DNA of 64,000 nt from contig OX377201.1 in NCBI GenBank assembly GCA_947396885.1, forward strand, positions 26,203,923 to 26,267,922. Direction: 5' to 3'. Each line of letters opens with the position of its first letter. Position 1 is the stretch's first letter. This document shows, piece after piece, positions 1,133 through 30,500 of the stretch. The notes beneath the pieces were generated by a model. It was not told the DNA's origin. It did not search any database and worked only from the letters and a program-made list of their open reading frames with translations. This DNA comes from Heligmosomoides polygyrus polygyrus (lineage: Eukaryota > Nematoda > Chromadorea > Rhabditida > Heligmosomidae). The translations under genes and the position numbers were made by a program.

Positions 1133-1247
1133 CGAATCCCTTCGCAAAGGTCTCGGCACTGGCACGTAGGATCAGGGCATCCGAATACGTTCATCTTCAG
1201 TCCGTGTGGGCACTGAGTCGTGCACCTTACACCGCACAGACGAAGAT
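1133..1247 (-). CDS. Exon: second antistasin-like module, last visible exon
   Basis: The 115-nt exon has a TTTACAG acceptor and a GTGAGT donor, phase 1 to phase 2. It encodes LCGVRCTTQCPHGLK followed by GCPDPTCQC, which is antistasin-like spacing. Its start phase matches the thyroglobulin exon. No further exon or stop was recognised between 1 and 1132, so the gene probably continues off the left edge. Confidence 0.78.
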
Positions 1248-4200
1248 CTGTAAAGTGCAGGCTAAAAGAACTGTTTGATATTGAATTACATTAAGAGAAG
1301 TTTAACTGCAGAAGAAAAGCTATAATCCAGTTGCCTCACGGCCTTTTTAGCTCCCATTTTAATGGAATTTTTCTCAATGACCTCGAAAACATTGCATGCC
1401 GTAAAATAAAAAGAATAAAGGCGTTACTCAATCCCTTCTAGGATGCGCCAGCGCATTCTACTTCTACGGGATGTCGTGGAGGCGACATGAATGCGTATTT
1501 GGCCATACAATGACTTGCGGTGGCCAGCCGATGAACAAGTCAGCGCTTTATCCTTCCCAGACACGTCTGGTACCAATTAACCGATCCCGGAATGATGGAT
1601 GGCTTGGTTAGCCTGGTCGGAAAATCCGGACCAGGAACCTGGTATCGGGTGCACGCGACCGTCAGCGCCTCCTCCGACTGCGCTACACGCGCCCTTCATG
1701 CCGTAAAATATTAATCTAATTTCATCAGCATTAAATAACTAAAAATTAATGAGTAGGAATAGCTCCTAGATTTTGAAGTGTTCATAGTTCGGATTTTAAT
1801 AATTTTCAACAAGTCTTCGTGAACGATGAGTTGAACTAAAAGCCTTATGGTTGAAATAGGCATCAGCCATTACTACTTCCGAACTCAAGGCAAGACCCTT
1901 CTGCAAATCCCGCGAAATTCACTGGGGATTTACGAGACGCAATCGAGCCGTCGCTACACAATTCGCTTCCTGTTTGCCTCTGAACCCCGCGCATAGTAGG
2001 TGCCATAATACGGTAAGCTCTGTCGGGGGAGACATTGGACATTGGACAAACAAGGACCGAAAGCGAGAATACGACGCGTACCTAGTACTTTCGCCTTCTA
2101 TCGCCGGATCCCAAGATTTCGCTGACGCATAGCAAAGAATTATGATATTCTGTTTATACAATATCTCGAAACAGTTTATACAATATCTCGAAACGGCAAA
2201 ATCTGGCTGTAATATTCTTTATCCAAAACGTTTTCTTCACACAGTATGTGCAAAGTGTAATGTGTTCTTATCTGCTTTATTTTTCGTGATCATCCACATC
2301 CACACTCTTCATTTTTCTGTGGACTTAGATGGACTGAAGCTTTTTGTGTCTTTTTTTGCACAGACAGAAAGAAAGGCTGAACAAGAGAGCTTCTTGCTAC
2401 CACATCCTACCGGCTTACTTTTTACCGTAGCTACCTCCGACTTCTTAGTGCTGAGAATCCGCTGGGGAGTATATATCTCCGCTTGGCCCCGGTAGCGTTC
2501 GATTGCCTTGACAGTCTGTCAAGACAGGCCGCGCTGCCTCGATGTGCTGTTAAAGCAAACAACGAAGCGGTTCATATAAAGGATGTCAGGTACGGATATC
2601 ATCCTCAGAATAAACAGCCGAGATGAGCAATGGTCGCGCACATGACCTGATCATCGCCTAATCTCTGCGAAAGCTAGTGGAGATGAAAGAAGATGACCCG
2701 CTCTAGAACCAGACTAACAGCAATTTCCTCGAGACATGGTTACGCTTTCAAGCCCTTCCTTTCCAAATGAGTTATTGAACGTAGTCATAACAGCCCTTTA
2801 GCTTTACTACAACAACTACCACAACTATAAGATCAGGTAGGGGAACAGACATTCAATGTGACTCGACAATAAATCCCGAAAATAGAGCGTATTTCAGTGG
2901 CGCTGTTTTAAGGCGGCCTTCAGTTTCAATCCCACACGATTCAATGTAATTTCATTGGCTCCACTCAAAACCCAACACTTTATAACCAAACTAGCAGCAA
3001 TTTTCCCGGGACTCGATTACACATTCAAGCCCTTCCCTTCCAAATAAATTCAAAATTAGGCCGCATGTAGCGCTGTCGGAGGAGGTGCTGCCTGTCGCGT
3101 GTACCCCATGCTAGGTTCTTGATTCGGATTTCCTTTTCCAGGCCAACCAAGCCTCCATCCCTCCGGGTCGGTGGATTGCTCCTGGACATGTCGGGGAAGC
3201 TCAAAGCGCTGACTTGTTCATCGTCTATCCATCACATCTCGTTGTATTGGCGGCATACGCATTCGCCTCCGCGACATCCTGTAGAAGTAGAATGCGTGGC
3301 GCATCTTCAAAATAGACTGAGTAACGCCGTCCTTTATCCTTATCCTTCCACTCAAAACCACTTATTCTTCAAAGCTTAGTTGGTGACACTCCCTGATTTT
3401 TTTTGCGGAGTAACCCATGGGGAAAATCGTCAAATATTTATAATCGAGCTTCAAGGCAGTACTGCACTTACGAGCCGCGAAAACTGGAGGGTTCATGGAA
3501 TTGTCCACATAAAGAGTCCTTCACAGTTGGTTAGTCTCACCAGGTAGCTGCTGCAGAGGAACTCTGTTTGTCGTTATGAGTGCCTTCACCCGCCCATTGA
3601 CCTCAGCATAACAAGTGTAAATAGCGAAAGAGCACTTCAGACGGATAAATGATGGCTACAGAGGCGCTCAATAGATGCCCTCATTCAGCGGATGCATCTG
3701 ATGAGCTTGTGAATCAGCCGTGACTGCTTCACCCATCCGTACCTCTGCACATGTCCCCCCGTTTCATTGACAGCGTCACCGCGGAGCCGGCGATTTCCGT
3801 GCCATAGTTCACGTCCACACACCAGCACTGTCGTCGGTCACATTGAATCGGAGCGAACTGAAAATGAAGTCGGAAAAATCTGTGAAAACGGGTGTAAAAG
3901 CTCCAGTCAATCATTTCGACTGCGTCCACAATTCACCGTGCCATCAGTTTCTGAACTAAAGAGAAGTAGAGCACCCCGTGGGCCATGCCATGTATTTGCC
4001 ATAGTAGTTTCCTACTAAATTAAATCTTTCCAGCTGTTGCTTAGTGCGCTAGAGAGCGCCTCATAAGGAACTTTCTTCTAGATCATTGGGTTCATTTGGC
4101 ATGGTTTCAAGAAACAAATTTTTTAAAGCGAGGTTTAAAGTTCAGGGGACTTGATCCAGTAATTTGTTCTCTGAAGATGAGTCTTACCAAAAAACGCAGA

Positions 4201-7200
4201 TTTCATAGACATTTTCTAAAGTGTAGAACCCTGAGCTTCAAGGAAAGCAAGCGAAACTAAGAGACTTGAAAGAATTGTTGTTAAAAAGTTAACTTTCTGC
4301 GAGACCTAAAAAAAGCTAAACATAATCGAAATGGTAAATACTGAAATTACTTTCTATAGAAATGAGCTTGGGGGTAAGCTTTCAATGTAAGCTATTAACC
4401 GTGCCATCAAAGAAGCATGATAAACCGTCTCCAATCATCTTTGGGAGTATTCGATACAGATGTTAAAGATACTTATAATTAAATTTAAAAACATTGACAA
4501 GGGCATTCATTTTTAGAACTGTTATCTTGGAACAATGCTACTGAAAGACCGCAAATAAACTCTCCGTATTGCGATTAGTGCTTCCAAAAAAGGGAAATAA
4601 GGGTGGTGTTGAACTCACGGATAGTAAGGGGAGATATTTCTATTATAAGACACTGCAGTAAAAGCAAACATAGACCTGCAAACGATCATTTTCTATTGCA
4701 AAAATTAGGCAGAAGGTTACATTATAAAATTAGGCATTAAACCTAGTTATTCTGATAATGAAGAGTATAAATTCATAGGTATTTCTCAAGTAGAGAACAC
4801 GCCTTGGATGCAAATATTGTAGTCATGAAAGGCACTGCATGTGGGTTCAATTTCTTCCAAGGTTTGCTGCCTACTCTTATCGTAACAAAGGTGAGAAAAT
4901 GTAAGGTATAGAGTATTAAAAGAAACCAAACGAAGGTGAAGGCTTGGAAAATTTATTTAAAAAACTAAATTTGCTGGATTTTCCTAGAATCTAAGCATAA
5001 TTCAAATGATTAATATTATATGTATTCATGTCTAAAGTTTTTTGCACGTTTTATACACTCTCCTGTTACCTCGAAAAAGGAATGAAGTTAGTAGTGTTAG
5101 CAAACCTTTGCGAAGTCTCACCAAACGATGCTCACACTCAAAGATCGAGAGCAAATGAGAAACTGGACAAAGGGTGAAAATCGAATGGGGTTTGTGCATT
5201 TGAATAAACATTGCTAGGCATTACCTTTCCCCTCTCGTCACAACGAGGCACGTATTCATCAAGAAGCGCTTGATCGGGGAGTCTTTTCACGGCTACAACG
5301 AGGTGAACACAGTCTAAAAATTACAGGTTCTTTAGAAGAAATCCTAACATTCGTACTAAAAGGGACTCTATTTTCAGTCAGCACCGTTTTCGAATAACGA
5401 AAAAAAGTGTGGCACAAATCAGAAAAAATTTGTGAAAAATCATCGAAATGAATAAAGGGCGATCAAGCAGGCGTAAAGTGGCTCACTGGTGGCCTTTGTC
5501 GGATCCACACATACTGATCCACATGCGTTCAAACAGCACTTCTCGACATCAGGGCATTGGCTGTCGTCAACGCACTTTGTATATGCTGCAGATTTAAATA
5601 CCCGTAAAGTTTTCTGGGGAGAATAAAGAGTTTAGTTTGCTTACAGCTGCATGTCCTCTCGTCTCCAGAAGGTGGACACAGACCAGCCTTCTCTTTTCGC
5701 CCCGACATCACCGTCACCTGCACGGATTTGTCTGGAAAAAGCGAATCGGGTGAAGAAACAGTGACAGTTGAACGCTCAAAGTGTATGGGTAAAGTAAAGT
5801 ATAATGAACCTATGTGAAAAGAGGCTGGAGCGATGGTGGCGTTCGCAGTCGTAACCACAGGGTTGAGATTGGGCGGAATGTTGAAGGCGGTGATCAGATG
5901 ATGAAAAGTTTTAGCTGTAAAGAAGCTTGAAGTATACATACACGAGACCTTGAAAATTAACCACTTTTCCAAGAAGCATACATTATTGCAAAAATAGTGA
6001 AGGAATGAAAATAACTACAGAAGAATGGATCTGAAAAAATAACTACGTAGCGAGAAACTAGGGATGAGAGTAAAGGCCGATACCGTCGACGGGTTGAATT
6101 GCGTTTTCGTTCTGAATGGGTCCTCTTGCCATAGCAGACATACACTCTCGACCGCAACCATTCGAGCAGCATCTTTGTGTTTCTGAAAGTATTGAGCTTT
6201 TATAAGCTCTCTAGTTGTGCTCTCGAAATTTTTCGAATATTTGAATGGCTTCGAATGCCCTAATCTTTCGAATTCGAAGATATTTGAAAAAGGGGTCTTT
6301 CTGAATATTCGAAACCGACATCCGAAAAACTCCATTTTTTAAGTATTTGAATTCGAACATTCAAATTCGAATGAGAATCATTCGAATACGTCATTCGAAT
6401 ATAACTGTAATAAGTTCTATATGTAAACAGCAACTCCACTACTGATACTTACATGGTTCATCGCAGAGAAATCCAAGCGCAATTTACAAAAATTTACCGT
6501 TATTTTAAACATTTATCCCGGTAGTATCTCTAGAATAACTGCAGATAGCGAAAACCTCAAGCGGAACCGAGAAAGGAGAGCAAATTGGAAAGATTTCACC
6601 GTTCTTACCCGCACAGTCTGAGTCCTTCTGACACCGCAGCGCACAAATACCGCCGATTATCCGCGGACATTCGAGTCGAGAAGCATCTGAACATCAACAT
6701 TTGTGCCACTCCTTCGCTAAGTGCGGTTAGTTTCCAACATTTATCTATTTGGGTGAACCACATGCAGAGGTAGAACCTGAATCTAGAACTGCTCCATGAT
6801 ATGAATTTGAGAAATGTTTGAAATAGAAAGCACTAACATGAACAACAAAGAAACTATAGAAAAAAAAACATAAACACCCTCCTTATTTGAGCTCGAACTT
6901 CAGTCGCTGGTTAAAATAGCTTGATGCTCTAAAATAGCCTACGTCCTCGACATACTTGGTACTCCTTTTTTTAGTATTACAAGGACTACAGCTACGAACT
7001 ATGTGCCTAAGAAGAAATTTGTTTTGCTCCAACCTATTTTTAAGTTTTATGTTGGACCGTCCCTCGAAAAAGAAGACGAAGTTTTCAATCCTTCAAATGC
7101 GGCAGCAATCAAAACCTTGGAAAGGTTAAAAGTGATTTCGCGCGTGAGACTTCGATTCTTTGAATTTTTAAAAATTATCAATTTGAGGATAAAGGGCGGA

Positions 7201-10200
7201 GTGCAGCGCTACTCAATCCTTTTTGGGACGCGTCACACATCTTGCTTCTGCAGGATATCGTGGAGGCAACTTGAATGCGCATTTCGCCTCTACAATGGCT
7301 ACAGCAATCCACACAATTCTAGCCTAGTTACGGAATTGATAACACTCACTATATTCCACATATTTGTTTATTGCGCGCACTATGACATGCTAAAGGAAAG
7401 AAAAATTTTAACACATCACATGTGTGACAACTAGGCCGCACTTACATTAAAAAATTGCTAAAAAAATTCAGAGCGGATGAGTATGAGTACAGATAAGCTC
7501 AAGGAAGGAGGGAGGAAAGGGCGAACAAAAACTTTAAGTTCTGTAATTCGTGGAGACAGAACTGAAGGCAATGTAGTATTGCAATTTCTTTAGGTTGAGA
7601 AGAAGAGAAGGTAAGACTGCAAGCACATAGGGTTCTTGGGAGCAACGTAAACTCAGTAGTTATCGTTTAGAATGGTGAAATCATCGTCACAAGAGGAACA
7701 GGATCTCTTATCCATAAGCAGGGTACTTGATCAGACTGTTCTTGAGCAGAAACTGCATCAGCCCGCCGATGTAAACTCTCCTCGCTCCTCCTCGTTGAAG
7801 GTTACAACTCCATGACACTTTTATGTCGGAGACTGACATGGAAACGGAAGGCAAGGTAACTACCTTCACATAAGTAAACTGCACTCTAAAAAAATGCTTA
7901 CTAGCTGCAGTATAAAACGAACGTCCAAATTTCGGCAGACAAGAAGACGTTTGGGCTGTACGCTAGGCACTGGATCCCGTGCAGACTCGGATAAATCGGA
8001 TCAGTCTCATCTTTTTCAAACCCAGTTTAAAGGGATTGTGCCAACAATGGGATTTTTGAAAAGCCCACATACTAGAGAAATTCAAATAAGGGTGAATTTC
8101 ACGAGATTGGATTTCCGGATAATTCAGATAACTGAATTTGATTAGAAATCTGATGTATTACCCGCTTCGAATATACGATGTAAGGTCCGAAGATAAATCA
8201 GTTATTCGGATCATCCAGAAATCTATTCCTCTGGAAGCTACTCTAAATAAGACCTCCGCTTTTTAAAAATTCCATTATCCGCGTAATCCTCTAAACCGGG
8301 TTTGAAGAAAATGGCGGACTGGAATCATCCGAATCGGCGCCGGAACTAATGTCTACTGTAGACTACCTGGTTAACAATCAAACACTACCTTGATAGTAAT
8401 CGCGACAGAAACAAAGTCGCTGTATTTCTCATTACGTAGGCATTTACTGGTGTAACAAATTATTAAATTGCTTCTGGTAGTGTCTGAAGTCCCTAGGGGA
8501 GCAAGGTAGGTAAATCGGTGCGAATTGTTTGACCCCACTGACTGCGGTTCGCATATCAACTCCTTGACGCAATAGGTCATCGAAGCTTATATGACCTTGA
8601 CTATCGCATAGGCTTCCTGCGCAAACTAACGATTGCGTCTCTTTAGGTCTAAGAGATTTTCAAGGTTCGAAAAGCCCACAGTCTTTCATTTCAATGACTT
8701 CCAGAGGAATATTCACATGAAGTTGGAATTGAACAGCCAAATTTTCTTTCAAATCTTTTAGCTCACCTACCCGACTGTTTAATTTGATGAGAAATATGTC
8801 CAATTTGGCGTAAAAGTGGTAGATATGGTGATACACATCTCTGGATGTGAAACGTCTTTTTTTGACAGAATGCGCAAAATAGTCTTGTTTTATTTGAGCA
8901 CAACCTCCACAGTTATGCAGGCGATCACTTACTCCCTGAGTGGCCACCGCGCCGGTGTCAGTTCTGGTCCAGTGCAAAAACAGGCATGGGTGAGCGCTAA
9001 TTTCTCCGATCTCAAATTGATCGTCCAGCGTCACAGAATTGCCGCCGTGACGGCGCTGCAGTGAGAAAATGATGCACGCGAAGTTGTGGTAATACTGAAG
9101 GGTGTTCGTTAACTCGTAATATAACGTAACGTTGAAAATTAGTCCGCTAGCCCTAGTTCGGAGGTTGAACCATTTAAGTAAGCGTAGAGCTCAGTGGCAC
9201 TACATTCAGATCACGAGGTAAGAATAGCAATATGGAGCAGATGGATTGAGACAGAAGACGAAAGGAATTCGCTGCCAGTGGTCAAAACTAGAGGCTGCAT
9301 TGAGTTGAGGTCCGTTCATTAGAAAAAGGAGAGCGCAAAGCTGGGTCACCGGTACGGCACGCGAGTTAGAGGCGAATACGCCATCCCGCTCGTAAGCAAT
9401 TAAAGGTGAAAAGGTTAAAGGACGGCGTTATTCAACCTTTTTTAGGGCGCGCCATGCATTCTACTTCTACAGAAGTAGGAATTACCCCGGATACGGGATG
9501 TCACGAAGGCAATTTTTTTCAACGCAATTTTTTTATTTGGCCTATCTATCTTCTACCTATCATCTCCTACCATGGGAACGTGCAGCGCAGTCGAAGGAGA
9601 TGTCGACTGTCGCGTGCACCCGATACCAAGTTCGTGGTTCGGATTTCCCGCCGAAGCAACCACGTCTTCCATCCCTCCGAGGTCGTTGAATTGCTAGTAC
9701 ACTTGTCTGGGAAGGATAAAGCGCTGACTTGTCTATCGACTGATCACCGGAAGTCATACGCATTTAATTCACCTCCACGATATCCAGTAGAAGCAGAGTG
9801 CGTGCCGCATATCAAAAAGGATTGAGTAACGCCGTCCTTTATCCTTTTTATTATTCTCATCTTCTACCACTATATATTTAAAGTAACCGTCGAGGCCGTT
9901 TGAGTGATCTTACCCGCGTGGGATACACCTCATCGTATTCCGCGCGGGCCAGGTTTGGCATTCAACGTGAGATGCTGCAGCTGCAGGGGAAGCGTAGGCT
10001 GTTCCTGCTTGACGCAGTGCGGTGTTCCAGGGCGGATAGTAGATGGGAGTCCACTCGTTGGTCTCGTAGTCCCACCTGCACAAACTACTCATCGGTTGCA
10101 GAGCTACCCGAGTGACAGAAGTATTGAGCAACACAAACCAATGACATTATTGAACGGTTTCCTAGACTGCCTATGACAAACGTACAGAAGCGGAGAACGC

Positions 10201-11100
10201 TTCATGCCGTAAATGTATGCACTAGAATCTAGATTTAGCGGATTTTAAGTTCCTCAAAGTTGCATCTTATAGCTTTGTGATGTTGCAAGATCGCGCGAAA
10301 CGCACAAGTGGGAGCACTTCTACTGTATTATTATATTTGGCCCATACTTGCGGTGGCCAGCCGATGGACAAGTCACTGTTTTCTACTCCCCAGCCAAGTT
10401 TTGTACCAACTCACTGATCCTGGAAAGATGGACGGCTTGATGGCCTGGACGGGAGAACGAAATCAGAGACATGGAATCGGATCACGAGACACTGACAACT
10501 CTTCCGCCAACCCTACCATGCGCCTAAGATGGCATAAGAAAACATAAAAAATGATTTGTGAACACAGACAGGCGTTTATCTCCTCCCTTTAATTGTGATG
10601 AGGTCTAAAGTTAATCACAAAAAACTTAACGACGTAGCCCTCTTATAGGTTAAAATAGTTGGCATAAAAGGAAACAAGCGGTTCTTAGAAGTGTCTGATC
10701 CTCTCGTTGCGTATGAGAGGAATAAAAAGAGAAATAAGAGATAGAAGACCACGAAGGAGCATGAGAATCATGGAATGCAGAGCTCTCACCGATATTCTGT
10801 AGACACCTGGCCACGCCACCCATTGTGATACACTGCTCGCCGACGGCGCACAACTTCGCCTGCAAGCATACGATGTTCTTCAGAAGGACCTCAACCCCAA
10901 AACGCCGCTAGAAAACTAGCCACCTGACACGGATCGGTGGCGCAGGCGCACACACATCCTGCACTGCCTCGCTGGTACCCAGTAGTGCAGACCAAGTTGC
11001 ATCGAGGGGGTCGCAGCAGGCACGAGTCCTCGATCACAGGTGGAAATGCCGCAGCGACCGAGATCGCCACATGAATTAACAGCAACACGTTGAGTGCCAT
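1133..11100 (-). CDS. Secreted multidomain protease-inhibitor-like protein (antistasin, 2x WAP, thyroglobulin type-1, antistasin), 3' end missing
   Basis: This is a minus-strand gene read by splice-site and phase matching. Exons in transcript order are 10924-11100, 10790-10859, an unresolved part, 8933-9055 (uncertain), 6609-6686, 6084-6182, 5645-5731, 5487-5585, 5225-5313, 3743-3857 and 1133-1247. From 6686 to 1133 every junction keeps frame and has GT/AG ends. The protein starts with a hydrophobic signal peptide (MALNVLLLIH...), so secretion is expected. Domains in order are an antistasin-like module, two WAP domains with eight cysteines each, a thyroglobulin type-1 domain with CWCV, and another antistasin-like module. 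All are families that commonly inhibit serine or cysteine proteases, so an extracellular inhibitor or matrix role is inferred. No stop codon was found, and the last exon ends in phase 2 before the left edge. It remains possible that 10.8-11.1 kb and 1.1-6.7 kb belong to two genes. Confidence 0.75.
1413..1694 (-). mobile_element. tRNA-derived SINE, copy 1 (full length)
   Basis: The minus strand starts with GTGTAGCGCAGTCGGAGGAG. TAGCGCAGTCGG fits the RNA polymerase III A box. The copy ends with GAGTAACGCC…TTTATT. About 280 bp. Intron of the inhibitor gene. Confidence 0.65.
1695..3061. other. Intronic/intergenic, no gene seen
   Basis: Apart from the 22-bp duplication at 2151-2194 I see no exon or recognised repeat. 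It is presumed intron of the inhibitor gene. Confidence 0.4.
2151..2194. repeat. 22-bp tandem duplication
   Basis: GTTTATACAATATCTCGAAA occurs twice head to tail. Confidence 0.75.
3062..3342 (+). mobile_element. tRNA-derived SINE, copy 2 (full length)
   Basis: Plus orientation, from TAGCGCTGTCGGAGGAGG to GAGTAACGCCGTCCTTTATC. It lies in the long inhibitor-gene intron between 1248 and 3742. Confidence 0.65.
3743..3857 (-). CDS. Exon: second half of thyroglobulin type-1 domain
   Basis: The 115-nt exon has a TTTTCAG acceptor and a GTACGG donor, phase 0 to phase 1. It encodes FAPIQCDRRQCWCVD, then NYGTEIAGS and a closing MC. CWCV is the hallmark of thyroglobulin type-1 domains, many of which inhibit cysteine proteases. 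With the previous exon the domain has the full six cysteines. Intron 3858-5224 separates them. Confidence 0.87.
5225..5313 (-). CDS. Exon: first half of thyroglobulin type-1 domain
   Basis: The 89-nt exon has a TTTTTAG acceptor and a GTAATG donor, phase 1 to phase 0. It starts with NCVHL and ends YVPRCDERGK, matching the opening cysteine and the Y-x-P-x-C segment of thyroglobulin type-1 repeats. Confidence 0.82.
5487..5585 (-). CDS. Exon: second part of WAP domain 2
   Basis: The 99-nt exon has a CTGCAG acceptor and a GTGAGC donor, phase 1 to phase 1. It encodes KCVDDSQCPDVEKCC, then CGSVC and a VDP tail, which is the diagnostic C-x5-C-x5-CC-x3-C-x3-C arrangement. With the preceding exon all eight WAP cysteines are present. 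Confidence 0.87.
5645..5731 (-). CDS. Exon: spacer and first part of WAP domain 2
   Basis: The 87-nt exon has a TTTTTCCAG acceptor and a GTAAGC donor, phase 1 to phase 1. It has a basic segment, then KAGLCPPSGDERTC, the typical WAP entry. The next exon, 59 bp further, completes the domain. Confidence 0.82.
6084..6182 (-). CDS. Exon: second half of WAP domain 1
   Basis: The 99-nt exon has an ACTTTCAG acceptor, phase 1 to phase 1. It encodes the WAP signature QRCCSNGCGREC followed by a Pro/Asn-rich spacer. The intron before it (6183-6608) holds one of the palindrome-rich TTCGAATATTCGAA repeats. Confidence 0.82.
6195..6415. repeat. Palindrome-rich TTCGAA repeat, copy 1
   Basis: Many TTCGAAT / ATTCGAA words alternate on both strands. 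It is inside the WAP-1 intron of the inhibitor gene. Confidence 0.55.
6609..6686 (-). CDS. Exon: first half of WAP domain 1
   Basis: The 78-nt exon has a GATGTTCAG acceptor and a GTAAGA donor, phase 1 to phase 1. It supplies the first four cysteines of a WAP (four-disulphide core) domain, ending CQKDSDC. The other four cysteines come from the next exon in the correct phase, which makes the assignment firm. Confidence 0.82.
7188..7310 (-). mobile_element. tRNA-derived SINE, 3' part
   Basis: It matches the 3' half (GGATATCGTGGAGGCAACTT) only. Confidence 0.5.
7440..8930. other. Unresolved part of the inhibitor gene
   Basis: At least one exon linking 8933 (phase 0) to 6686 (phase 1) should lie here or elsewhere, but no convincing candidate was found. 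Around 8160-8310 there are GGAT/ATCC-rich palindromic words. Confidence 0.3.
8933..9055 (-). CDS. Candidate exon of the inhibitor gene, no recognised domain
   Basis: The 123-nt exon has a strong CTGCAG acceptor and a strong GTAAGTG donor. Only one of three frames is open through it, in phase 0 to phase 0. It encodes 41 residues with a single cysteine and an acidic middle (TLDDQFEIGEIS). I do not recognise the family. Strand and position fit the inhibitor gene, but the exons that would link it in phase to its neighbours were not found. Confidence 0.45.
9414..9473 (-). mobile_element. tRNA-derived SINE, 3' scrap
   Basis: About 60 bp of the SINE 3' end, in the opposite orientation to the adjacent copy at 9579-9846. 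Confidence 0.45.
9579..9846 (+). mobile_element. tRNA-derived SINE, copy with clear A and B boxes
   Basis: The A-box region GCGCAGTCGAAGG lies near 9584. The B-box-like GGTTCGGATTTCC at 9636-9648 is about 50 bp downstream. The 3' end is GAGTAACGCCGTCCTTTATC. Confidence 0.65.
9960..10072 (-). other. Possible coding segment between exon 2 and the 9.0 kb exon; frame unresolved
   Basis: A GC-rich stretch unlike its intronic surroundings follows a good TTTGTGCAG acceptor. The frame that would match exon 2 (phase 1) is Thr/Pro-rich with one cysteine and hits a stop. It could only leave through a weak donor (GTCAAG) in phase 0, which would fit the next candidate exon. Another frame is open to a stronger GTAAGA donor but has the wrong phase. 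I cannot decide between them. Confidence 0.25.
10322..10526 (-). mobile_element. tRNA-derived SINE, partial
   Basis: It shares the middle block CGGTGGCCAGCCGATGGACA and the B-box side. The 3' end is missing. Confidence 0.5.
10790..10859 (-). CDS. Exon 2: cysteine-rich continuation of the first module
   Basis: The 70-nt exon has a TTGCAG acceptor and a GTGAGA donor. It encodes a segment of LCAVGEQC...GVARC type, a pattern frequent in nematode secreted cysteine-rich proteins. It begins in phase 0, matching exon 1, and ends in phase 1. The intron to exon 1 is 64 bp, typical of nematodes. Confidence 0.65.
10924..11100 (-). CDS. Exon 1: start codon, signal peptide, antistasin-like module
   Basis: The 59 codons start at ATG 11098-11100. 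Residues 1-19 form a hydrophobic signal peptide, with likely cleavage near AAAFP. Cysteines then follow antistasin spacing (C-x6-C-x3-C, a GY pair, GC-x-C-x-C, then DPC). The donor follows CAG with GTGGCT, and the exon ends in phase 0. The next exon is 64 bp away and continues the cysteine pattern. The start is chosen because it opens the hydrophobic leader. Confidence 0.7.
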
Positions 11101-11572: not shown

Positions 11573-11856
11573 AGGCGCGTGGTAGCGCAGTCGGAGGAGG
11601 TGCCGGCTGCCGCGAACACCCGATTCCTGATACCTGGTTCGGATTTCCCCACCTAGACCAACCAAGCCTCCAATTCTCTGGAGTATTACAATTGGCACTA
11701 GATTCGTTAAGGAAGTATAAAACACTGACTTGGGGCTTGCTACCGCTTTTCCTCGTGTGTCGGCCAAATGCGAAAAGAAGTTGCATCTATGACGTACCAT
11801 AAAAGTGTAATGTGTAGCGCATACCAAAAAAATAATTAATGCCGTCCTTAGCCCTT
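11573..11856 (+). mobile_element. tRNA-derived SINE, full length with internal divergence
   Basis: TAGCGCAGTCGGAGGAGGTG at 11583-11602 is the A-box region, and TGGTTCGGATTTCC at about 11635 is B-box-like. The middle is diverged; the tail has GCCGTCCTTAGCC. Confidence 0.6.
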
Positions 11857-12540: not shown

Positions 12541-13080
12541 TTTTCTTCTTCTTCTTCTTCTTCTTCTTCTTCTTCTTCTTCAGCGTTTATACCGCTTCGC
12601 CGCGGGGTCCTCTGGTGTTATGACGCCACCTTTCCCGGTCCTGCGCTTGATCAGGGTGGACGCCAGTTACTTTCATGTCCATGTGTAACGTATCCGACCA
12701 ACGCTGCTTCGGGCGTCCTCTAGGCCGCTTTCCTGACACTTCCAGCTCAAGGCCTATCTTGCGGACGCTGTCATCGTTTCCACGCAGAACGTGGCCGTAC
12801 CATCGTAAGCGAGCTTCGCGCATCTTGTCGCTATCGGCGCGACACCGAACTCTTGCCGAATAGCATCATTTCGAATGCGGTCCATGCGCGTGGCTCCAGC
12901 CGTCCAGCGCAGCATCTTCGTCTCCATTTCGTTTCAACTTCCTTAGTGGCAGGCTAACACTCAGCGCCGTACATCGCTACCGGCCGCATGGACTGTTCTG
13001 TAGATCTTCGACTTCAGGTGTTCTGGTATATTCCTATCACAGAGCACGCCAGTCAGCGAACGCCACTTGGACTGAGAGAC
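12541..13080 (-). mobile_element. RTE-A copy 2, 3' fragment
   Basis: This is the 3' end of the RTE-A ORF (RWYGHVLRG, GKRPRGRPKQRWSDTL, KWRSLTGVLCD) with frame breaks. It begins on the plus strand with a long (TTC)n tract (12542-12581). The 5' truncation is typical of incomplete reverse transcription. Confidence 0.75.
12542..12581. repeat. (TTC)n microsatellite
   Basis: About 13 units at the 3' end of RTE-A copy 2; it is the retrotransposon tail. Confidence 0.8.
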
Positions 13081-13357
13081 TACGGTATTACGACTACCGT
13101 ACTGCCGGAGTGGGAAGGGGTGAGAAGGCCAGTCGAAAAAGTTCGCCGAACCGGCCACCTACCGCCTTTTATAGTTGATTTTGGGTTGGCGCTTGGTGGA
13201 TGACAGCCGGTAACGGTTCATAACAACAAAAAGGGTTGTTAGTGAAGAGACAGACACTTCTGCTAATGCGAGAAACACTTGAATGTCATGGAAAAGGATT
13301 TGGTTTTTCGTGAGATTACAGTCCGTCTTACGAAGCTTTAGAAAGGATTCCTTTCAG

Positions 13358-13645
13358 GCTGGAGCGGTGCCACCTATTGTAGCCTATACAAGAGCGAAGG
13401 CGGAGTATGTTGTCCAGGACGAGGTGAGTCCATCATCTCAGTATAAACCTTAGGCTTTTCCTCATCGCTATGCTCGTATTTATCTAGAACCCCGATGGTC
13501 ACCTGGCACATGCCCACCAGCTTCCTCGTCCAACAGTGACTGCTCACGCCAATGTCTTATTGACGAGCAGTGCTCTTCTGGACAACGGTGCTGCTTCAAC
13601 GGATGCGGATTGGCTTGTGTAGCAGCCGGTGAGGAGGGATTCTAG
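13358..13645 (+). CDS. WAP-domain protein, C-terminal exons (plus strand)
   Basis: Exon 13358-13423 (CTTTCAG acceptor, GTGAGTC donor, phase 1 to phase 1) encodes WSGATYCSLYKSEGGVCCPG. Exon 13488-13645 (ATCTAG acceptor) continues in phase with PGTCPPASSSNSDC, RQCLIDEQC, QRCCFNGCG and LAC, a complete eight-cysteine WAP domain, then a TAG stop. The intron is 64 bp. Alternatively, a donor GTGAGG after 13628 and a CCTCAG acceptor before 13685 would give a 56-bp intron and a different end at TGA 13708-13710. A possible upstream mini-exon ends at 13308 (49-bp intron, matching phase), but no signal peptide was found. Function: likely a secreted small protease inhibitor, inferred from the family. The gene lies between two same-orientation RTE-A copies. 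Confidence 0.65.
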
Positions 13646-13807
13646 ACAATGCTGGAAAAGCAGGCGCGACGGTTACATCCTCAGCCATCCATACCTGCAG
13701 ATCAAAATGAAGATCTATTAAAGCAGAACCAAAAGATTCGTCGTTGTTATAGGGCAGCACGCTATGCCGATTCGTGTAAACATCGCAATATGCTGGAAGA
13801 GAGTGTT

Positions 13808-16800
13808 AAACTTCTTCTTCTTCTTCTTCTTCAGCGTCTGTCCCGCTTCGTAGCGGAGTCCGCTATTCTGGTGTCGTGACGCCACCTTTCCCGATCCAGC
13901 GCTAGATCAGGTTGGACACCAGCCGCTTTCAACTCCGTATGTAACGTATCAGCCCAGCGCTGCTTCGGGCGCCCTCTAGGCCGCTTTCCTATTACCTCGA
14001 AGTTAAGGCCTATCTTGCGGACGCTGTCTTCCTTTCCACGCAGAACGTGGCCGTACCATCGTAAGCGAGCTTCGCGCATCTTGTCCGCTATCGGCGCGAC
14101 ACCGAACTTCTGCCGAATGACATCGTTTCGGATGCGGTCCATGCGCGTGACTCCAGCCGTCCAGCGCAGCATCTTCGTCTCCATGACGCTGAGGCGCGTT
14201 CCAACTTCCTTGGTCGCAGGCCAACACTCAGCGCCGTACATCGCTACTGGCCGCACGACGGCTCTGTAGATCTTTGACTTAAAGCGCTCTGGTATCTTCT
14301 TGTCGCAGAGCACGCCAGTCAACGAGCGCCACTTGGACCAAGCTGCACTCACGCGTGAATTCACTTCGAACATCAGTTTGCCGTCAGACGCGACTGCTGA
14401 TCCCAGGTACTTAAAGACCCCAGTGCGTGGAAGCTCGATGCCGTTAACCTTGATGGAGCTGGACTCGGTAACGTCCGTCGTTAAATACTCGGTCTTCTTC
14501 ACGTTCAATCTGAGTCCAAACCGCTCCAAGCGATCACACCAAGGTTGCAACTCTCGCTCGAGTTCTCCTTTGTCTTCGCTAGCGAGCATCACGTCATCGG
14601 CATAAAGCAACGTCCAAGGGACGAGCTTCTGAAGAACTCGTGTGATGGCATCCATGACGACAACAAACAGGAGTGGAGAAAGCGCAGAACCTTGGTGCAC
14701 CCCAACAGAGATGGGAAACTCCATTGAGTTTCCAGCTGCAGCTTGCACTCTACTTTTTGGGCAAGAGTAGAGCATCCGCACCCACTCTATAAGTTCCTCA
14801 GGTACGTTGTGTTGTCGCAAGGCGCACCATATAACCTCACGCGGTACGCGATCGAAGGCCTTCTCCAAGTCGAGAAAGGCTATATGCACCGGCTTCTGTT
14901 CCTCGCGATGCTTCTCCAACAGGAGGCGAGCGGCGTGTATAGCATCAATGGTCCCACAACCAGCTACGAAGCCGCACTGGTTGTCGGAGAGCTTGCCGAT
15001 TTCACGAATTCGACTATCGAGGATTCGCTTGAAGATCTTCATGCTGTGCGAAAGCAAGCGAATCGGACGATAATTGGAGCAGTCTGCAGAGCTGCCCTTC
15101 TTCTTCCAAATCGGAATCGACGTACTGTTCTGCCAACACTTCGGTACTTTCTTCTCCTTTACTACCTGGCTGAAGAACTCAGCTAACCACACAGCAAAAT
15201 ACCAGAGGTTGACTTCCAGACATCGGCTGCCAGATCATCCGGTCCTGTCGCCTTGCATGGCTCCATCTTCTTCAGAGCCGCTCTGTTTCTTCCACGGTGA
15301 TCTTGTGAATGGGACCGTGAACAGCACCCACAGAAGGGATGGCCGGGTGAGGAAATTCCATAGTGGAAATTTCCTCAAAGTAATCACGCCATCGCTTCAG
15401 CGCCTTTTTGCGGTCTGTCAGAAGATGGCCGCTCTCATCATTGATGCCAACAAACTTTTCAATATCCTCGGTTTGGCGATGGCGGGTCTTAGCAAGTCGG
15501 TACAAATACCGCTCACCGTCGCGCGACTCGAGCTTTCGGTATACATCACCATAATGAGTGGCTTTCGCAACAGCCACGGCTTTCATAGCAGCCTTCTTCG
15601 CCTTCTGATATTTCTGCCAGTTGTCGGCTGTTCTGTCGCCGAGAAACACATGATACAGCGACTTCTTTTCTCGAACCTTCGCCTTCACATCGTCCGTTCA
15701 CAGCCATGTCTGCTTGTCGACCTTGCGTCGTCCAGGCTTCGTTGTACCGAGTTCCAGCCTAGCAGCCTGGCGTATTGCGTCGGTTGCTTTCTTCCAAGTT
15801 TCATCGACAGTTGTGACTGTAGGTAACCGTACGCGAGAAATCACAGCTGCTTCCTTCTTGTCATTCGCCACCACTTGATTCTCGCAGTACTGCATCGCTC
15901 AACGTGCTGCACCCTCGGAGAGGCGATCTTCAAAGTACAGATCAGCGGTCGATGCTGCGGGCGACCGTCTCATACTGCACGATCTTCGCGTCTGTAACAA
16001 TGCTTTGGTCGCGATCCTTGACAAGCACAAAGTCTATCTGAGACTTGGAGCTCCCACTATAGTATGAGATGAGGTGGGATTCGCGTTTTTGGAAAACGGT
16101 GTTCACAATGGTGAGATTATGCGATTCCGCATACTCAAGAAAGCGCTCACCATCGGCGTTACGAGGCCCTATCCAAAACCACCATGACAGCTGTACCCGT
16201 CCTTCGCAGCACCTACGTGCCCACTAAGGTCACCAGCGACTATGATGACATCTTTCGACGATACCTCTGCTGTCTTCTCATCAAGCAGGCTCCAAAACTC
16301 TTCCTTGTCTTGATCGGAGCAGCCAGTCTGCGGAGCATACGGAGAGAAGAAGTGATAGAATCGCTCCTTAGCGGCAACAACGATCTTCATCAATCGATCG
16401 TCAAAGCGTTCCACGCTTACAATCGAGTCACGAACTCGTTCGGAGACGATTATTCCGACACCACTGGTGGTCCTGGGACTTCCAGATAGAACGGCCGTGA
16501 AGCCACGTCCTATGTCCCATAACGGCAGGACCACCTCGTCTCCTGCACCGCACAGAAATCAACTCCTCTACGTTCCAGTGCTTCAACCAACTCGCACGAG
16601 CGGCCCGTCAACGGACCCACATTCAGCGTAGCCACGCGGGTCCTGCTTATGTTACGGAACTTTTGGACTAGCTTAGTTGCCCCCCGATGCCGTCCTCACA
16701 TCAGGGACCCTCGCATACTTCTCACACTCGCCGGGCTCTGCGATTGCTCGTCGGCTCCCGCGGATGCCGTAGCACAATCTCGAAAAACATGACTTATCAT

Positions 16801-25000: not shown

Positions 25001-28000
25001 TATGGGCGGCTCTCATGTATCCCTGGCCAGGAACATGTGAGTAACCAGACCACCGCTACGGCTCAAACAACTAAACCCGCGCCCCAGTCCTCCGCGCGCC
25101 GGAGGTGGACTTCTACGACGTCGGTTGCATCCACCTCCGGCGAGGGGCCATCTAATCTCTGAGTTAAACTATCAGGACGTCATTGGAATCGGACTACCGA
25201 AAACTCTCTCCCACCACGACACGGAAACTGCCTATTCGTCTGCACTTATAACTGTCGTTCGATCGCATCTGAGCAGGATCTTCGGACACTGCTTTATAGA
25301 AGCCGAAACATCAAATACGACGTTATCGCTCTGCAGGAAACAAAAGGCAGAACGGAAACCATAAGAAGGACCGACCACAACGAGCTTCTCATTATCGGAG
25401 CAAAGGTGGACAGAAAGAATATTGGCGGAGTTGGATTTCTCGTCAATTCGACAGTGCGAAGTAGACTCTTACAAGATCATCAGTCCGCGAGTAGCTGTTC
25501 TTCGTCTGGAAACCAAGGATCAAGGAACCATCTCCATCATAAATGGATATGCTCCAACATCTGCGGCCACAGATGAAGAAAAGGAGGAATTCTACAATCT
25601 GTTTGAAAGGACTGTCAACGACGAGAAGAACTACTACAAAGTTGTCGTTGGTGACTTTAACGCTATCGTCGGTACGAATGATCACGACGAATGGAGGCTA
25701 GGACCACATGGAACTTCCTCAAGGAACGAAAACGGAGAGCGCCTGATAGACTTTCTATCCGCGTGCCGTCTCTACCATGGAAATTCTATGTTTAAGAAGC
25801 CTTCAAACCGACGATGGACCTGGGAAAGCCCAAATGTAGGAACACGGGAGATCGACCATGTTCTTACGAACAGACGCTGGAGTCTGTTCGACGTCTTTGT
25901 GCTGCCTTCATTTGACACCGGCTCGGATCACCGTCTTGTCCGTGCGAAGCTGACTCTCAAAAAGAGGATGTTCAAGCGTGACACCCATAAACCGGCACCG
26001 GTGAGGATCCCCACATTCAAGTCTGAGGAGTTGGAATATGCGATAAAGCCGTATGATTGGAATCTTCTTGAAGATCCATCGGAAGACTACGACCTTCTCT
26101 CCAAAGGACTGTTGAAATGTGCTAGCAGCTCTTGCGAAGCCGCATCGCCGTCTGCTTCAAGACTCAACGCACATGCGATTAAACTCTTGGAGCAAATTAG
26201 AGCTGTTAAACTGGATCCTAATGCTTCCCATCTGGAAAAAGTCACCATCTCGAAGGCCTGTCGAATTGCAGTGAAGGAGTCCATTCAAGCCTACAGAAGA
26301 TTGAAGCTGTTAGAAGCGGCTGGGAAAGGTTCAAGCATAAAGCGCTGCAAACGAGATCTCTGCGACCAGAAGGCAATAATGTCAGCCCTTGTGGATAAGG
26401 ATGGAACAACGCAAACGTCTCGAAGAGCGATGGAGGCCATCGTTCAGGAATTCTACACAGATCTGTTCCGTTCTTCCATCACTGTCCCGAAATGCTTGAT
26501 GCCACCAGCTGAGGAAGCACCTCCCATTCTGGAATCAGAAGTTGCTCATGCTATCAGAAGGATGAAGCCGGGCACTGCTCCCGGACCGGACGGCATTTCT
26601 GCTGATCTCCTTCTTGCGGGTGGCAGTGCTCTCTGCTCACTTCTTGCCAAGCACTTCAACCACTACCTTCGACTTGGTAGGATTCCGGACTCATGGAAGG
26701 AGTCGAAAACAGTTTTAATCTTCAAAAAAGGACAGCAGGAGGATATCAACAACTATATCAACGGCCCATCAGTCTTCTCTCGGTTGTGTACAAGATCTTC
26801 ACCAAGATACTGCTTAACCGCATGGAGCGTTGCTTGGATGAATATCAGCCAGTGGAGCAAGCAGGGTTTCGCAAGGATTTCTCCTGCATGGCCAATATTC
26901 AGACTGTCCCACAGCTCATCGAAAAGAGCCGCGAATACCACCTCCCACTTGTCCTTGTCTTCGTGGATTATCGGAAAGCGTTCGACTCTGTGGAAATCAA
27001 CGCCATTCTGAACGCCCTTGTGCACGCTGGTATACCATCGCCCTACATCCGACTTCTCGACGAATGCTTCTCGAACACATCGACTACCATCCAGCTGTTC
27101 GATCGAAAGCTTAAAATTCCTACCGGAAAAGGAGTGCGGCAGGGAGACACGATTTCTCCCATACTATTCACAGCGGCACTCCAGGATGCCATGAAAGACT
27201 TGAACTGGGACGATAAAGGCTACCTTGTCGACGGTAAACGGATCAGCAACCTTCGCTTCGCCGACGATATTGTTCTCATCTCTACCAGCACGGCAGAAGC
27301 CGAGGAAATGCTGAACGAGCTCAATGGGCAGGTATGAAGATTGGATTGGACATGAATATGTCCAAGACACAATTTATGGTCAACCAGTGGTGTGACACGG
27401 GACTCGTAAGGTTAAATGGAGTCGCTCTGCAACAGGTCGACTCCTACGTCTATCTGGGAAGAGACCTGAACATGGATAACGACCTCGCTCCTGAAATCGC
27501 CCGCAGGAGACGCGTAGCATGGGCAGCCTTCAGTTCGATTCGCGAGGTCACCGATCAGGTCAAGGATCCCGGCCTCAGGGCTTCGATATTCAACGTCTCT
27601 GTACTGCCTGCGAGGTGTTATGCGACGGAAACCTGGCCCGACCATAAGATAATCGCCAGAGCGATGCAAACTACGCATCGTGCACTGGAGAGATGTCTTC
27701 TAAGGACAAGCTTTCGTCAGCAATGGCAAGAAGGCCTACGAAGCTCGGAGCTACGGGAGAAGTCGCAATTAGCAGACCCGCTGCAGTACATGAAGAAGTC
27801 CAAATATCGCTGGGCCGGACACCTGCTTCAACGAAAGGACGATAGATGGAGTCTCCGTGTCACAGAATGGCTCCCGAAAGACCATAAGAGACCACTGGGA
27901 CGACCGCCAACGCGATGGGCAGACTCGTTCTCAAGATCTTTCAAAGAGCGGAGTCTGCCTCACTGGATGCAAGCAGCCAGAGATCGAGCGGTCTGGAAGA

Positions 28001-28070
28001 GTTGTGGTCCCCGCTGAGAAGACCTCCAGCCGACAAAGGACCATCAAAGTATCAAAGTAAGTAAGTATTA
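25000..28070 (+). mobile_element. RTE-type retrotransposon RTE-B, nearly full length, two frameshifts
   Basis: After a 5' leader, the endonuclease starts near 25305 (YDVIALQETKGR, NIGGVGFLVNS) and shifts frame at about 25440 into the main ORF 25422-26755: GDFNAIVG, TREIDHVLTN, GSDHRLVRAKL, then the RT entry GTAPGPDGISADLLLAGG. A second frameshift near 26755 leads to 26756-27337 ([34 protein letters not shown]). A third segment, 27334-28017, overlaps by four bases and carries the C-terminal part (KSKYRWAGHLLQRKDDRW, RPLGRPPTRWADSF). The 3' tail is AAAGTATCAAAGTAAGTAAG. Catalytic motifs are intact; only single-base shifts break it. Confidence 0.82.
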
Positions 28071-29099: not shown

Positions 29100-30500
29100 C
29101 TCGTCAAAGCTTCTTTTGGAAGCGGATCTAAACTATCCCGCTTTTGTACTGAAGCGAATCGGCATCGGGATCTGATCTCCTGGTTACGGGATGCCTTTGC
29201 CGTAGAATGTTCCAATTTGAATTCGTAAAGCATGATGACTCGATAGTTGCGTCGGTTTGTGGGAGGGGTAAGCAGACCTGAAGCGCACGATGATGCTCTC
29301 ACTACTGGGCTTACGATACCATTTCGTATGGGATCTGCCCCGCGTGCAACTAACTTGTACGTTGAGGAACGACAACCAGTTTAGTGGGTTTTTCTCTTGT
29401 GAGCTTAATGTGCTCTGCCTGCTGGTTGAGCAATTCGAAACACATGTCTATTTCGTTTCGGGTATCACATACAATAAAACAGTCATCAATGTAGCGACGA
29501 TACAGTAGAGGTCGGCACTCTATTTTACACATAAATGCAACAGCCAATACCGGTGCCAGACGCTGCCGTATAGCCAGTCCTCTAACCTGCTTATGCCACC
29601 TATTGGACCATCTGAAAACATTGCATTCCAGGCACCCACTTATGAGCGTCATAATTCCTGTTGTAGGTAGCCCATAAAGATTTGGCTCGCTCTGATGTGC
29701 CTTGAGGATTTCGTATACCGTTTGCATTGCGCTGCTTTTAGGGTCATTCGTGTACAGCGATGTGACATCGAACGACTCCCCTGTTTTCTCCCAATGACAC
29801 TCCCTTAAGCTTCCCCAGGAAAGCGGCGGTATTGGGAAGGTGGGCCGGCAGAAACTTAAGGAACTGTTTGAGGACCAGATTTAGTAACCACGGCACGCGA
29901 TCTGTGGGGCCCCACCCCAACGCCGCTAACAATAGGTCTGACCTTAAACACCGCTGGGTTGTTGATGGAATCTTCCTGGGCAATCTGTGGGTCTTGATGA
30001 CGTACGTACATACCGGGTTAAGGCACTTGAGCATTCTTATAAGCTTATCGTCGAATCCGGCTTTTCTTGCAATCGTAGACCACGTCTGGTAAAGACGCTC
30101 GGACTGGGCTGTGAATTCCTTGAACGTGGAATGAACGTCGACACTGTGGTCCTGGAGGTGCTGTCTAGTAATAGCTCTTCAATCTCTTGTGGAAGGACCA
30201 CAAACTCCCTCCTTTGCCACTGACGACCACTCTTAAAGAGCAACAATCCACAAGATCCTTTATTTCTTTCAAACCCTTCGCTGGCCGGGCAATAGGTTGG
30301 GATTGATCCGTTTTGTCATTCCTCTCTGCAGAACCGGGAGCAAGGTGGTGGCTAACATGCGGCACTTGGTATTGATCGCCCGATCTGGTGGCCGCGTACT
30401 TAAAAACGAAAGTGGGAAAGGCGGTGTCGGTAAACCCGCCCTGTTAGCCGAGATCAGCTGACTGCCTTGCGCATCGATTTTTGCCCTAGCCCGTAGCCGA
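29100..30500 (-). mobile_element. Penelope-like retroelement (PLE-2), degenerate RT
   Basis: Minus-strand RT pieces run in order with frameshifts: LLFKSGRQWQRREFVVLPQE (30037-30246), YVIKTHRLPRKIP and LLNLVLKQFLKFLPAHLPNT (29744-30034), then LYGLP, CLECNVFRWSNRWHKQVRGL and RRYIDDCFIVC (29350-29727), and KWYRKPSSESIIVR (29184-29375). The YIDD box is intact here, unlike PLE-1. No GIY-YIG part was seen. Confidence 0.72.

What the first reader, a model, noticed from the sequence alone, without database searches (positions are those of the whole stretch)
1133..11100. Secreted protein combining antistasin, tandem WAP and thyroglobulin type-1 domains
Eleven candidate exons on one strand, invisible as a long ORF. 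From the first WAP exon to the second antistasin-like module the splice phases agree at all six joins, and all domain cysteines are present. Antistasin and WAP modules often target serine proteases, and thyroglobulin type-1 modules often target cysteine proteases, so one secreted protein could act on two protease classes. In a parasitic nematode this would matter at the host interface, but the role is inference.
Basis: partly seen in the sequence, partly recalled or inferred. Interest (0 to 1): 0.75.

Follow-up and report, generated by a model that had tools for sequence, protein, structure and literature searches.

The report
Giant membrane-anchored nematode inhibitor-domain protein
The window holds the front end of a 58-exon, 72-kb gene for a very large, probably cell-surface protein built from repeated protease-inhibitor-type modules; relatives occur in free-living and parasitic roundworms alike, so it is probably a basic roundworm component rather than a special weapon against the host.

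The parts
10924..11100 (-). Exon 1: ATG, hydrophobic leader (likely signal peptide), antistasin-like module 1, start of the first NPC module; ends phase 0
   Evidence: Open frame and GT donor; near-identical to the start of P0001; N-terminal 19-residue mean hydropathy 2.34
10790..10859 (-). Exon 2: rest of the first NPC module; ends phase 1
   Evidence: GT-AG, phase fit; join 1-2 spanned by 7 of 7 relatives aligned
6609..6686 (-). Exon 3: WAP module 1, first half
   Evidence: join 2-3 spanned by 6 of 7 relatives aligned
6084..6182 (-). Exon 4: WAP module 1, second half, and start of the linker
   Evidence: join 3-4 spanned by 5 of 7 relatives aligned
5810..5914 (-). Exon 5: linker between the two WAP modules
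   Evidence: P0013 spans both joins; P0002 and P0006 carry a similar linker
5645..5731 (-). Exon 6: end of linker and WAP module 2, first half
5487..5585 (-). Exon 7: WAP module 2, second half
5225..5313 (-). Exon 8: thyroglobulin type-1 module 1, first half; ends phase 0
3743..3857 (-). Exon 9: thyroglobulin type-1 module 1, second half (CWCV core)
1133..1247 (-). Exon 10: antistasin-like module 2 and start of the second NPC module; ends phase 2 and joins an exon at -397..-473, left of the window (48 further exons down to -61301)
   Evidence: join 10-11 spanned by P0013 and by P0014, P0018 and P0020

Best explanation
The window holds the 5' end of a 58-exon gene, apparently single-copy, on the minus strand and running off the left edge. 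It encodes a predicted type I membrane protein of 2,207 residues: signal peptide; antistasin-like and NPC modules; five cassettes of WAP-WAP-thyroglobulin type-1-antistasin-NPC-lustrin; a sixth cassette without WAP; a second lustrin module; one Kunitz module; an alpha/beta juxtamembrane domain; one transmembrane helix; a cytoplasmic tail. Shown by sequence: exon structure, reading frame, cassette order and strong cysteine conservation across nematodes. Shown by prediction only: the signal peptide, the transmembrane helix and the juxtamembrane fold. Inferred mechanism: a long, disulfide-rich rod held at the surface of worm cells, most likely on epithelia facing the apical matrix or cuticle. It would act mainly as a scaffold or tether that holds matrix components, proteases or signalling ligands in place, with protease inhibition at most by some modules (thyroglobulin type-1 the likeliest). 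It is not a dedicated host-directed inhibitor.
For: 58 exons, 57/57 introns GT-AG, 6,624 nt in one frame to TGA, 246 Cys. P0013, 2,085 aa on a contig of at most 6,573 bases although the locus spans tens of kb, aligns without gaps at 98.3% and spans 54/57 junctions of the final model; it agrees with 44 of 45 covered joins of the model, which was set before P0013 was seen. The other three junctions are spanned in relatives. Pfam on P0013: thyroglobulin 6 stretches, WAP 8, lustrin 5, antistasin 3, Kunitz 1. The 13 nematode proteins of 2,091 aa or more that were scanned show the cassette series, Kunitz and a hydrophobic 19-mer (mean 2.29 or more) near the C-terminus. Cysteines kept in these 13: 223 to 246 of 246 (246 Haemonchus, 245 C. 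nigoni). AlphaFold model of P0029: juxtamembrane residues 941-1030 at pLDDT 83-91, then a helix 1039-1073. Weak inhibitor signature: Kunitz P1 S/N/T/H in 14 of 14; WAP C2-C3 loops of three residues in 7 of 10 and less conserved than the rest of the WAPs (0.244 against 0.400, 4 of 10,000 permutations). Copy number: a 130-aa query matched only this gene (4 matches, 9 candidates), a 38-aa query once. Slow divergence: 36 changes in 2,085 residues from P0013, against a genome-wide synonymous divergence of 6.6% between the sister species (PMC10682056, passages).
Against: No expression, localisation or biochemical data. The transmembrane helix and signal peptide rest on hydropathy and an AlphaFold helix, not on a dedicated predictor. 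Of nine shorter nematode records, only P0029 has a strongly hydrophobic C-terminal segment (2.92); P0025 reaches 1.96 in an unrelated-looking end; P0022 and P0035 keep the juxtamembrane start and the tail but skip 36 and 62 residues including the helix, in frame (P0022 also skips part of the Kunitz); the other five end elsewhere. So soluble isoforms may exist, or those gene models are faulty. The protein could also be shed and still reach the host. A fast-changing reactive loop can mean adaptation of an inhibitor rather than loss of function. Apical or cuticle location is by analogy only.
Confidence: 0.57

Rival explanations
1. A multi-headed protease inhibitor in the strict sense: WAP, antistasin and Kunitz modules block serine proteases and thyroglobulin modules block cathepsins, at the worm surface or after shedding, regulating moulting proteases or host enzymes.
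For: All named module families contain known inhibitors (recalled). The C. elegans moulting protein MLT-11 carries one thyroglobulin, three lustrin and ten Kunitz domains and acts in cuticle synthesis (PMC13181417, passages). Two WAPs (6 and 8) have eight-residue C2-C3 loops. Record P0022 is named after inhibitor families (species not shown there).
Against: Kunitz P1 never Lys or Arg in 14 sequences and variable (S 6, N 4, T 3, H 1); 7 of 10 WAP loops have three residues; loops less conserved than the rest. Thyroglobulin module 4 lacks two of the six cysteines (sequence).
Confidence: 0.25
2. A host-interface effector: a secreted or shed inhibitor specialised for parasitism.
For: The species is a gut parasite of mice; protease inhibitors are enriched in hyper-divergent haplotypes of Heligmosomoides (PMC10682056, passages). 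Two nematode records skip the membrane segment.
Against: Same architecture in free-living, plant-associated and filarial nematodes; membrane anchor; 98.3% identity to P0013 over 2,085 residues; apparently single copy. 'Thyroglobulin' occurs 0 times in four Heligmosomoides secretion papers, seen as counts in a search listing of ten of 105 papers only.
Confidence: 0.09
3. A cell-surface ligand tether, working like the antistasin-bearing type I membrane protein CRIM1 or like the TY1-bearing EpCAM/TROP2 receptors.
Confidence: 0.25

Closest known systems
Unnamed full-length nematode orthologues: Haemonchus contortus V3C99_006626 (P0014), Necator americanus RB195_003304 (P0015), Nippostrongylus Q1695_007110 (P0016), Caenorhabditis nigoni B9Z55_013866 (P0019)
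   Same: Same cassette order, length 2,095-2,233 aa, Kunitz and hydrophobic C-terminal segment; 46.5-72% identity over aligned residues
   Different: Individual modules are missed in some of these predictions; in six of the 13 relatives scanned (Steinernema, Panagrellus, Acanthocheilonema, Aphelenchoides) a WAP stands before the sixth thyroglobulin module
C. elegans MLT-11 (W01F3.3)
   Same: Large nematode protein with thyroglobulin, lustrin and Kunitz domains (PMC13181417, passages)
   Different: MLT-11: one thyroglobulin, three lustrin, ten Kunitz; the words WAP and antistasin do not occur in that paper. Here: six thyroglobulin, ten WAP, seven antistasin-like, one Kunitz, plus a membrane end
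EpCAM / TROP2
   Different: A Kunitz, not a thyroglobulin module, precedes the domain in nematodes; about 2,000 residues of extra modules; no sequence-level match
CRIM1
   Same: Type I membrane protein with antistasin-like repeats (PMC11922885, passages)
   Different: CRIM1 has an IGFBP motif and six von Willebrand C domains; no WAP, thyroglobulin or lustrin domain is listed in the passage
Iphiclides podalirius protein P0037 (butterfly, 1,438 aa, partial)
   Same: WAP, thyroglobulin, antistasin, NPC and lustrin modules in similar order, one Kunitz, hydrophobic C-terminal segment
   Different: Fewer cassettes, one WAP each; two thyroglobulin modules follow the Kunitz; its juxtamembrane stretch does not resemble the nematode domain in sequence

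Membership tests
Nematode WAP-TY1-antistasin-lustrin membrane protein family (unnamed; H. contortus V3C99_006626 type) | Series of WAP-WAP-TY1-antistasin-NPC-lustrin cassettes ending in lustrin-Kunitz | tested here: met
   Module profiles on the model and 13 near-full-length nematode relatives; single modules missed in some, and one WAP present in the sixth cassette of six of them
Nematode WAP-TY1-antistasin-lustrin membrane protein family (unnamed; H. contortus V3C99_006626 type) | End-to-end similarity with conserved cysteines | tested here: met
   72% identity over 2,197 residues and 246/246 Cys with P0014; 46.5% over 2,097 and 245/246 with P0019
WAP domain (PF00095) | Pfam score above cut-off, eight cysteines | tested here: met
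   63.7 bits against 20.8 in the window part; eight Cys in all ten modules
Thyroglobulin type-1 (PF00086) | Pfam score above cut-off | tested here: met
   51.4 bits against 20.6 in the window part; six stretches in P0013
Antistasin (PF02822) | Pfam score above cut-off | tested here: inconclusive
   The 309-residue window part reaches only 15.5 of 21.2 bits; the long protein P0013 reaches 37.9, so the family is present and the two modules in the window are antistasin-like
Canonical (standard-mechanism) serine-protease inhibitors | Kunitz P1 residue typical of trypsin inhibitors (Lys/Arg; recalled) | tested here: not met
   P1 is S, N, T or H in 14 of 14 sequences
Canonical (standard-mechanism) serine-protease inhibitors | WAP reactive loop of elafin/SLPI length (eight residues between C2 and C3; recalled) | tested here: inconclusive
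   In the model seven of ten modules have three residues, one five and two eight; lengths differ in some relatives, for instance seven in WAP 3 of C. nigoni and C. bovis
MLT-11 orthologue | Ten Kunitz domains, one thyroglobulin domain | tested here: not met
   One Kunitz and six thyroglobulin stretches against the MLT-11 description
EpCAM/TROP2 family | Juxtamembrane domain of the EpCAM C-terminal fold before a single membrane helix | tested here: met
EpCAM/TROP2 family | Detectable sequence similarity of that domain | tested here: not met
   A 12-sequence profile finds no EpCAM/TROP2 among 177,635 PDB sequences at E<=10
EpCAM/TROP2 family | Thyroglobulin type-1 module directly before the domain | tested here: not met
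   The Kunitz module lies there in nematodes; the butterfly relative has thyroglobulin modules after its Kunitz
Excretory-secretory protein of Heligmosomoides | Presence in secreted products | not testable with these tools
   No proteome data could be searched by sequence

The most novel reading that the evidence does not exclude
The family is an ancient ecdysozoan cousin of EpCAM/TROP2. It would be a thyroglobulin-rich giant ectodomain on an EpCAM-type juxtamembrane domain, one membrane pass and a short tail (ending in Tyr-Tyr in 11 of 13 nematode relatives), working as a cell-surface adhesion or signalling protein that happens to be built from inhibitor modules. EpCAM would then be a stripped-down relic of a much larger ancestral protein.
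Probability: 0.2. Interest if true: 0.65.

Novelty: new member of a known kind. Interest (0 to 1): 0.35.

Why it matters
Records of this locus and of its relatives in pieces invite the reading 'secreted inhibitor at the host interface'. The full model shows a conserved, probably membrane-anchored giant that free-living nematodes also carry, so it could be studied in a Caenorhabditis laboratory strain. It also shows how a 72-kb intron-rich gene loses its context when read in a 64-kb window. If the EpCAM-like fold reflects descent, it would bear on where EpCAM came from.

Tried and rejected
Exon-like piece 10075-9914: considered as an exon between exons 2 and 3. Rejected because its open frame needs another phase (my reading), relatives join exons 2 and 3 directly, and it contains a dispersed repeat.

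Acceptor at 10877 for exon 2, chosen by my simple exon-chaining script: rejected in favour of 10859 because P0001 and P0002 lack the extra residues. The same script also picked up what I read as transposase and reverse-transcriptase fragments in introns; these were dropped by eye before the hand-set model. That model still had two internal errors and a wrong last donor, seen against P0013: an unspliced short intron in exon 36 and a missed thyroglobulin half-exon. They were corrected.

MLT-11 as the C. elegans orthologue: rejected on domain make-up. My recalled guess that the C. elegans counterpart is C08G9.2 could not be tested; the one paper holding that name (passage) lists it among haem and iron-binding genes, which does not support the guess. 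No C. elegans protein appeared in the lists.

Pfam on the juxtamembrane stretch gave nothing for the worm of the window, and only sub-threshold, unconvincing matches for two relatives. Sequence profile against PDB: no EpCAM. Butterfly juxtamembrane stretch against the nematode profile: no better than shuffles (score -1.4, 100 of 200 shuffles as high or higher; hhalign probability 0.1, against up to 4.9 in 60 shuffles). The butterfly's last thyroglobulin module matches EpCAM and TROP2 (E 8e-5 and 5e-4), but saxiphilin (8e-5) and thyroglobulin (2e-4) match as well, so this is not specific. NCBIfam, a prokaryote library: no match for P0014. Foldseek's own top list (50 of 903 rows shown) shows thyroglobulin, Kunitz and saxiphilin entries, not EpCAM; EpCAM tops only the VIA re-alignment, where one long model makes most of the list Kunitz.

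All ten paper searches used: no listed title or abstract start was about this family. Only open-licence papers are held there, and listings were cut to 20 or fewer rows.

Full report
Place and species. The window is G000:C39:26203923-26267922 of a 656.17-Mb assembly with 1,130 contigs. The chromosome-level Heligmosomoides polygyrus genome spans 656.6 Mb and that of its sister H. bakeri 649.2 Mb (PMC10682056, passages), so I take the window to be H. polygyrus; this is inference. The near-identical record P0001, labelled H. polygyrus, and P0013, which bears no species name, share residues with each other that differ from the window, as expected if they come from the laboratory species H. bakeri, often called H. 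polygyrus in the literature.

The exons. I re-read the minus strand and set exon ends by GT-AG and phase. Nine exons gave one open frame of 929 nt. A tenth, the linker exon 5914-5810, came from comparison with relatives that have a similar linker. The last exon in the window ends in phase 2 at 1133, so the gene had to continue to the left.

The rest of the gene. I fetched 160 kb to the left. tblastn with five relatives showed many more exons of the same kinds on the same strand down to about -56 kb, and no convincing ones further left. A hand-set 49-exon model reached 1,917 residues without a stop. Searching with it returned 43 proteins at E<=0.001. Of these, 21 carry nematode names, two (P0013, P0022) show none, and 20 are from other animals. 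P0013 is an open frame of 2,085 residues on a contig of at most 6,573 bases, although the exons are spread over tens of kilobases, so it must derive from spliced RNA or a processed copy. It supplied the end of the gene. The final model has 58 exons from 11100 to -61301, 57 of 57 introns GT-AG, 6,624 nt, 2,207 residues and 246 cysteines. P0013 aligns to residues 123-2207 with no gap, 2,049 of 2,085 identical, and spans 54 of 57 junctions. The other three junctions (1-2, 2-3, 3-4) are spanned without gap by P0002, P0014, P0016 and P0018.

How independent is this? I chose many exon ends partly by phase and by looking at relatives, and used P0013 for the last part and for two repairs of the gene model, so the final agreement is not blind. 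The fair figure is for the model, set before P0013 was seen: of its 48 joins 45 are covered by P0013, 44 agree without a gap and one needed an extra exon between; one short intron had been left in.

Architecture. From the N-terminus: hydrophobic leader, antistasin-like, NPC; five times WAP-WAP-thyroglobulin-antistasin-NPC-lustrin; thyroglobulin-antistasin-NPC-lustrin; lustrin; Kunitz; about 120 residues; a hydrophobic segment; a tail. 'NPC' is my own label for a six-cysteine stretch that Pfam does not name (the first copy has four); the scripts call it EB. The fourth thyroglobulin module has four of six cysteines (sequence). Pfam on P0013 confirms the named families: thyroglobulin 226.3, WAP 137.3, lustrin 87.1, Kunitz 69.3, antistasin 37.9 bits.

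Relatives. I scanned 17 of the 43 returned proteins besides P0013. All 13 nematode ones, of 2,091-2,546 residues, show the cassette series (single modules missed in some), Kunitz, and a hydrophobic 19-mer of mean 2.29 or more near the C-terminus. Six of them have a WAP in the sixth cassette, which the strongylid and Caenorhabditis proteins lack. They include Caenorhabditis, Auanema, Panagrellus, Steinernema, Aphelenchoides and the filaria Acanthocheilonema. Nine shorter records (eight named nematodes and P0022) were checked later for the end only: P0029 has the hydrophobic segment; P0025 does not have a matching one; P0022 and P0035 keep the flanking sequence and tail but skip 36 and 62 residues including it, in frame; the other five end elsewhere. 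Whether that means soluble isoforms or faulty predictions I cannot tell. Identity to the model ranges from 72% (Haemonchus) to 38% (Aphelenchoides fujianensis), and 223 to 246 of 246 cysteines are kept in the 13. A butterfly protein, P0037, has a similar module order with fewer cassettes and a hydrophobic C-terminal segment.

Is it an inhibitor? The Kunitz residue at P1 is S, N, T or H in all 14 sequences compared; Lys or Arg is usual in trypsin inhibitors (recalled). Between WAP cysteines 2 and 3, where elafin has its eight-residue reactive loop (recalled), seven of ten modules of the model have three residues, one five and two eight; relatives mostly agree but differ in WAP 2, 3 and 6. These loops are less conserved than the rest of the WAPs (mean pair identity 0.244 against 0.400; 4 of 10,000 permutations). 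That speaks against fixed-specificity inhibition by these modules, but fast change could also be adaptive. The thyroglobulin modules were not tested further.

What it probably does. Cysteine and cassette conservation over these nematodes, a membrane anchor, apparent single copy and low protein divergence from P0013 point to a constrained structural or tethering role at cell surfaces. Thirty-six changes in 2,085 residues against a genome-wide synonymous divergence of 6.6% suggests a dN/dS near 0.1; this is rough arithmetic of mine, not a codon calculation, and assumes that P0013 is H. bakeri. MLT-11, which shares three of the module types, works in cuticle synthesis (PMC13181417, passages), so the apical matrix is the likeliest place by analogy.

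Novelty. The family is already present in databases as unnamed predictions, one record even being named after its domains (P0022). No listed title or abstract start in the ten searches named in Tried and rejected was about it. The window's gene is a new member of that kind; what is added here is the complete gene, the membrane end and the EpCAM-like fold.

Noticed in passing
window 13070-13812 (+): An inverted 88% identical copy of exons 28-29 of this same gene (original at -27733 to -28485), with both exons still readable, lying between fragments of a retroelement that I read as RTE-like. A genome search found only these two long matches, plus two short weak ones.
   Followed up: partly
window 9914-10075 (-): GC-rich exon-like open frame in intron 2 that contains a dispersed repeat: 29 matches in the genome at E<=0.001, its own place included, most of them to part of it, among 150 scored of 1,142 candidates.
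   Followed up: yes
window 1505-1694, 3067-3247, 9574-9847, 10346-10439, 11582-11681: Degenerate copies of what looks like one dispersed repeat, in both orientations, in the introns and upstream of the gene.
   Followed up: no
window 13834-15234 (-), 25365-28014 (+), 29353-30178 (-), 40870-41754 (-): Long reverse-transcriptase-like open frames (my reading of the translations; not searched).
   Followed up: no
G000:C39, about -35576 to -36414 in window coordinates: The fourth thyroglobulin module lacks two of six cysteines in the model, and the stretch 'IQxHxGLxWCVD' recurs in the majority consensus of 22 relatives, so the four-cysteine variant looks conserved.
   Followed up: partly
C-terminal tail of relatives (not in window): Eleven of 13 near-full-length nematode relatives end in Tyr-Tyr after a short tail, two Caenorhabditis ones in SIG; the Heligmosomoides protein ends in VYR.
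   Followed up: partly
P0022 and P0035 (relatives, not in window): Two records skip the membrane segment in frame while keeping the tail: possible soluble isoforms or faulty gene predictions.
   Followed up: partly
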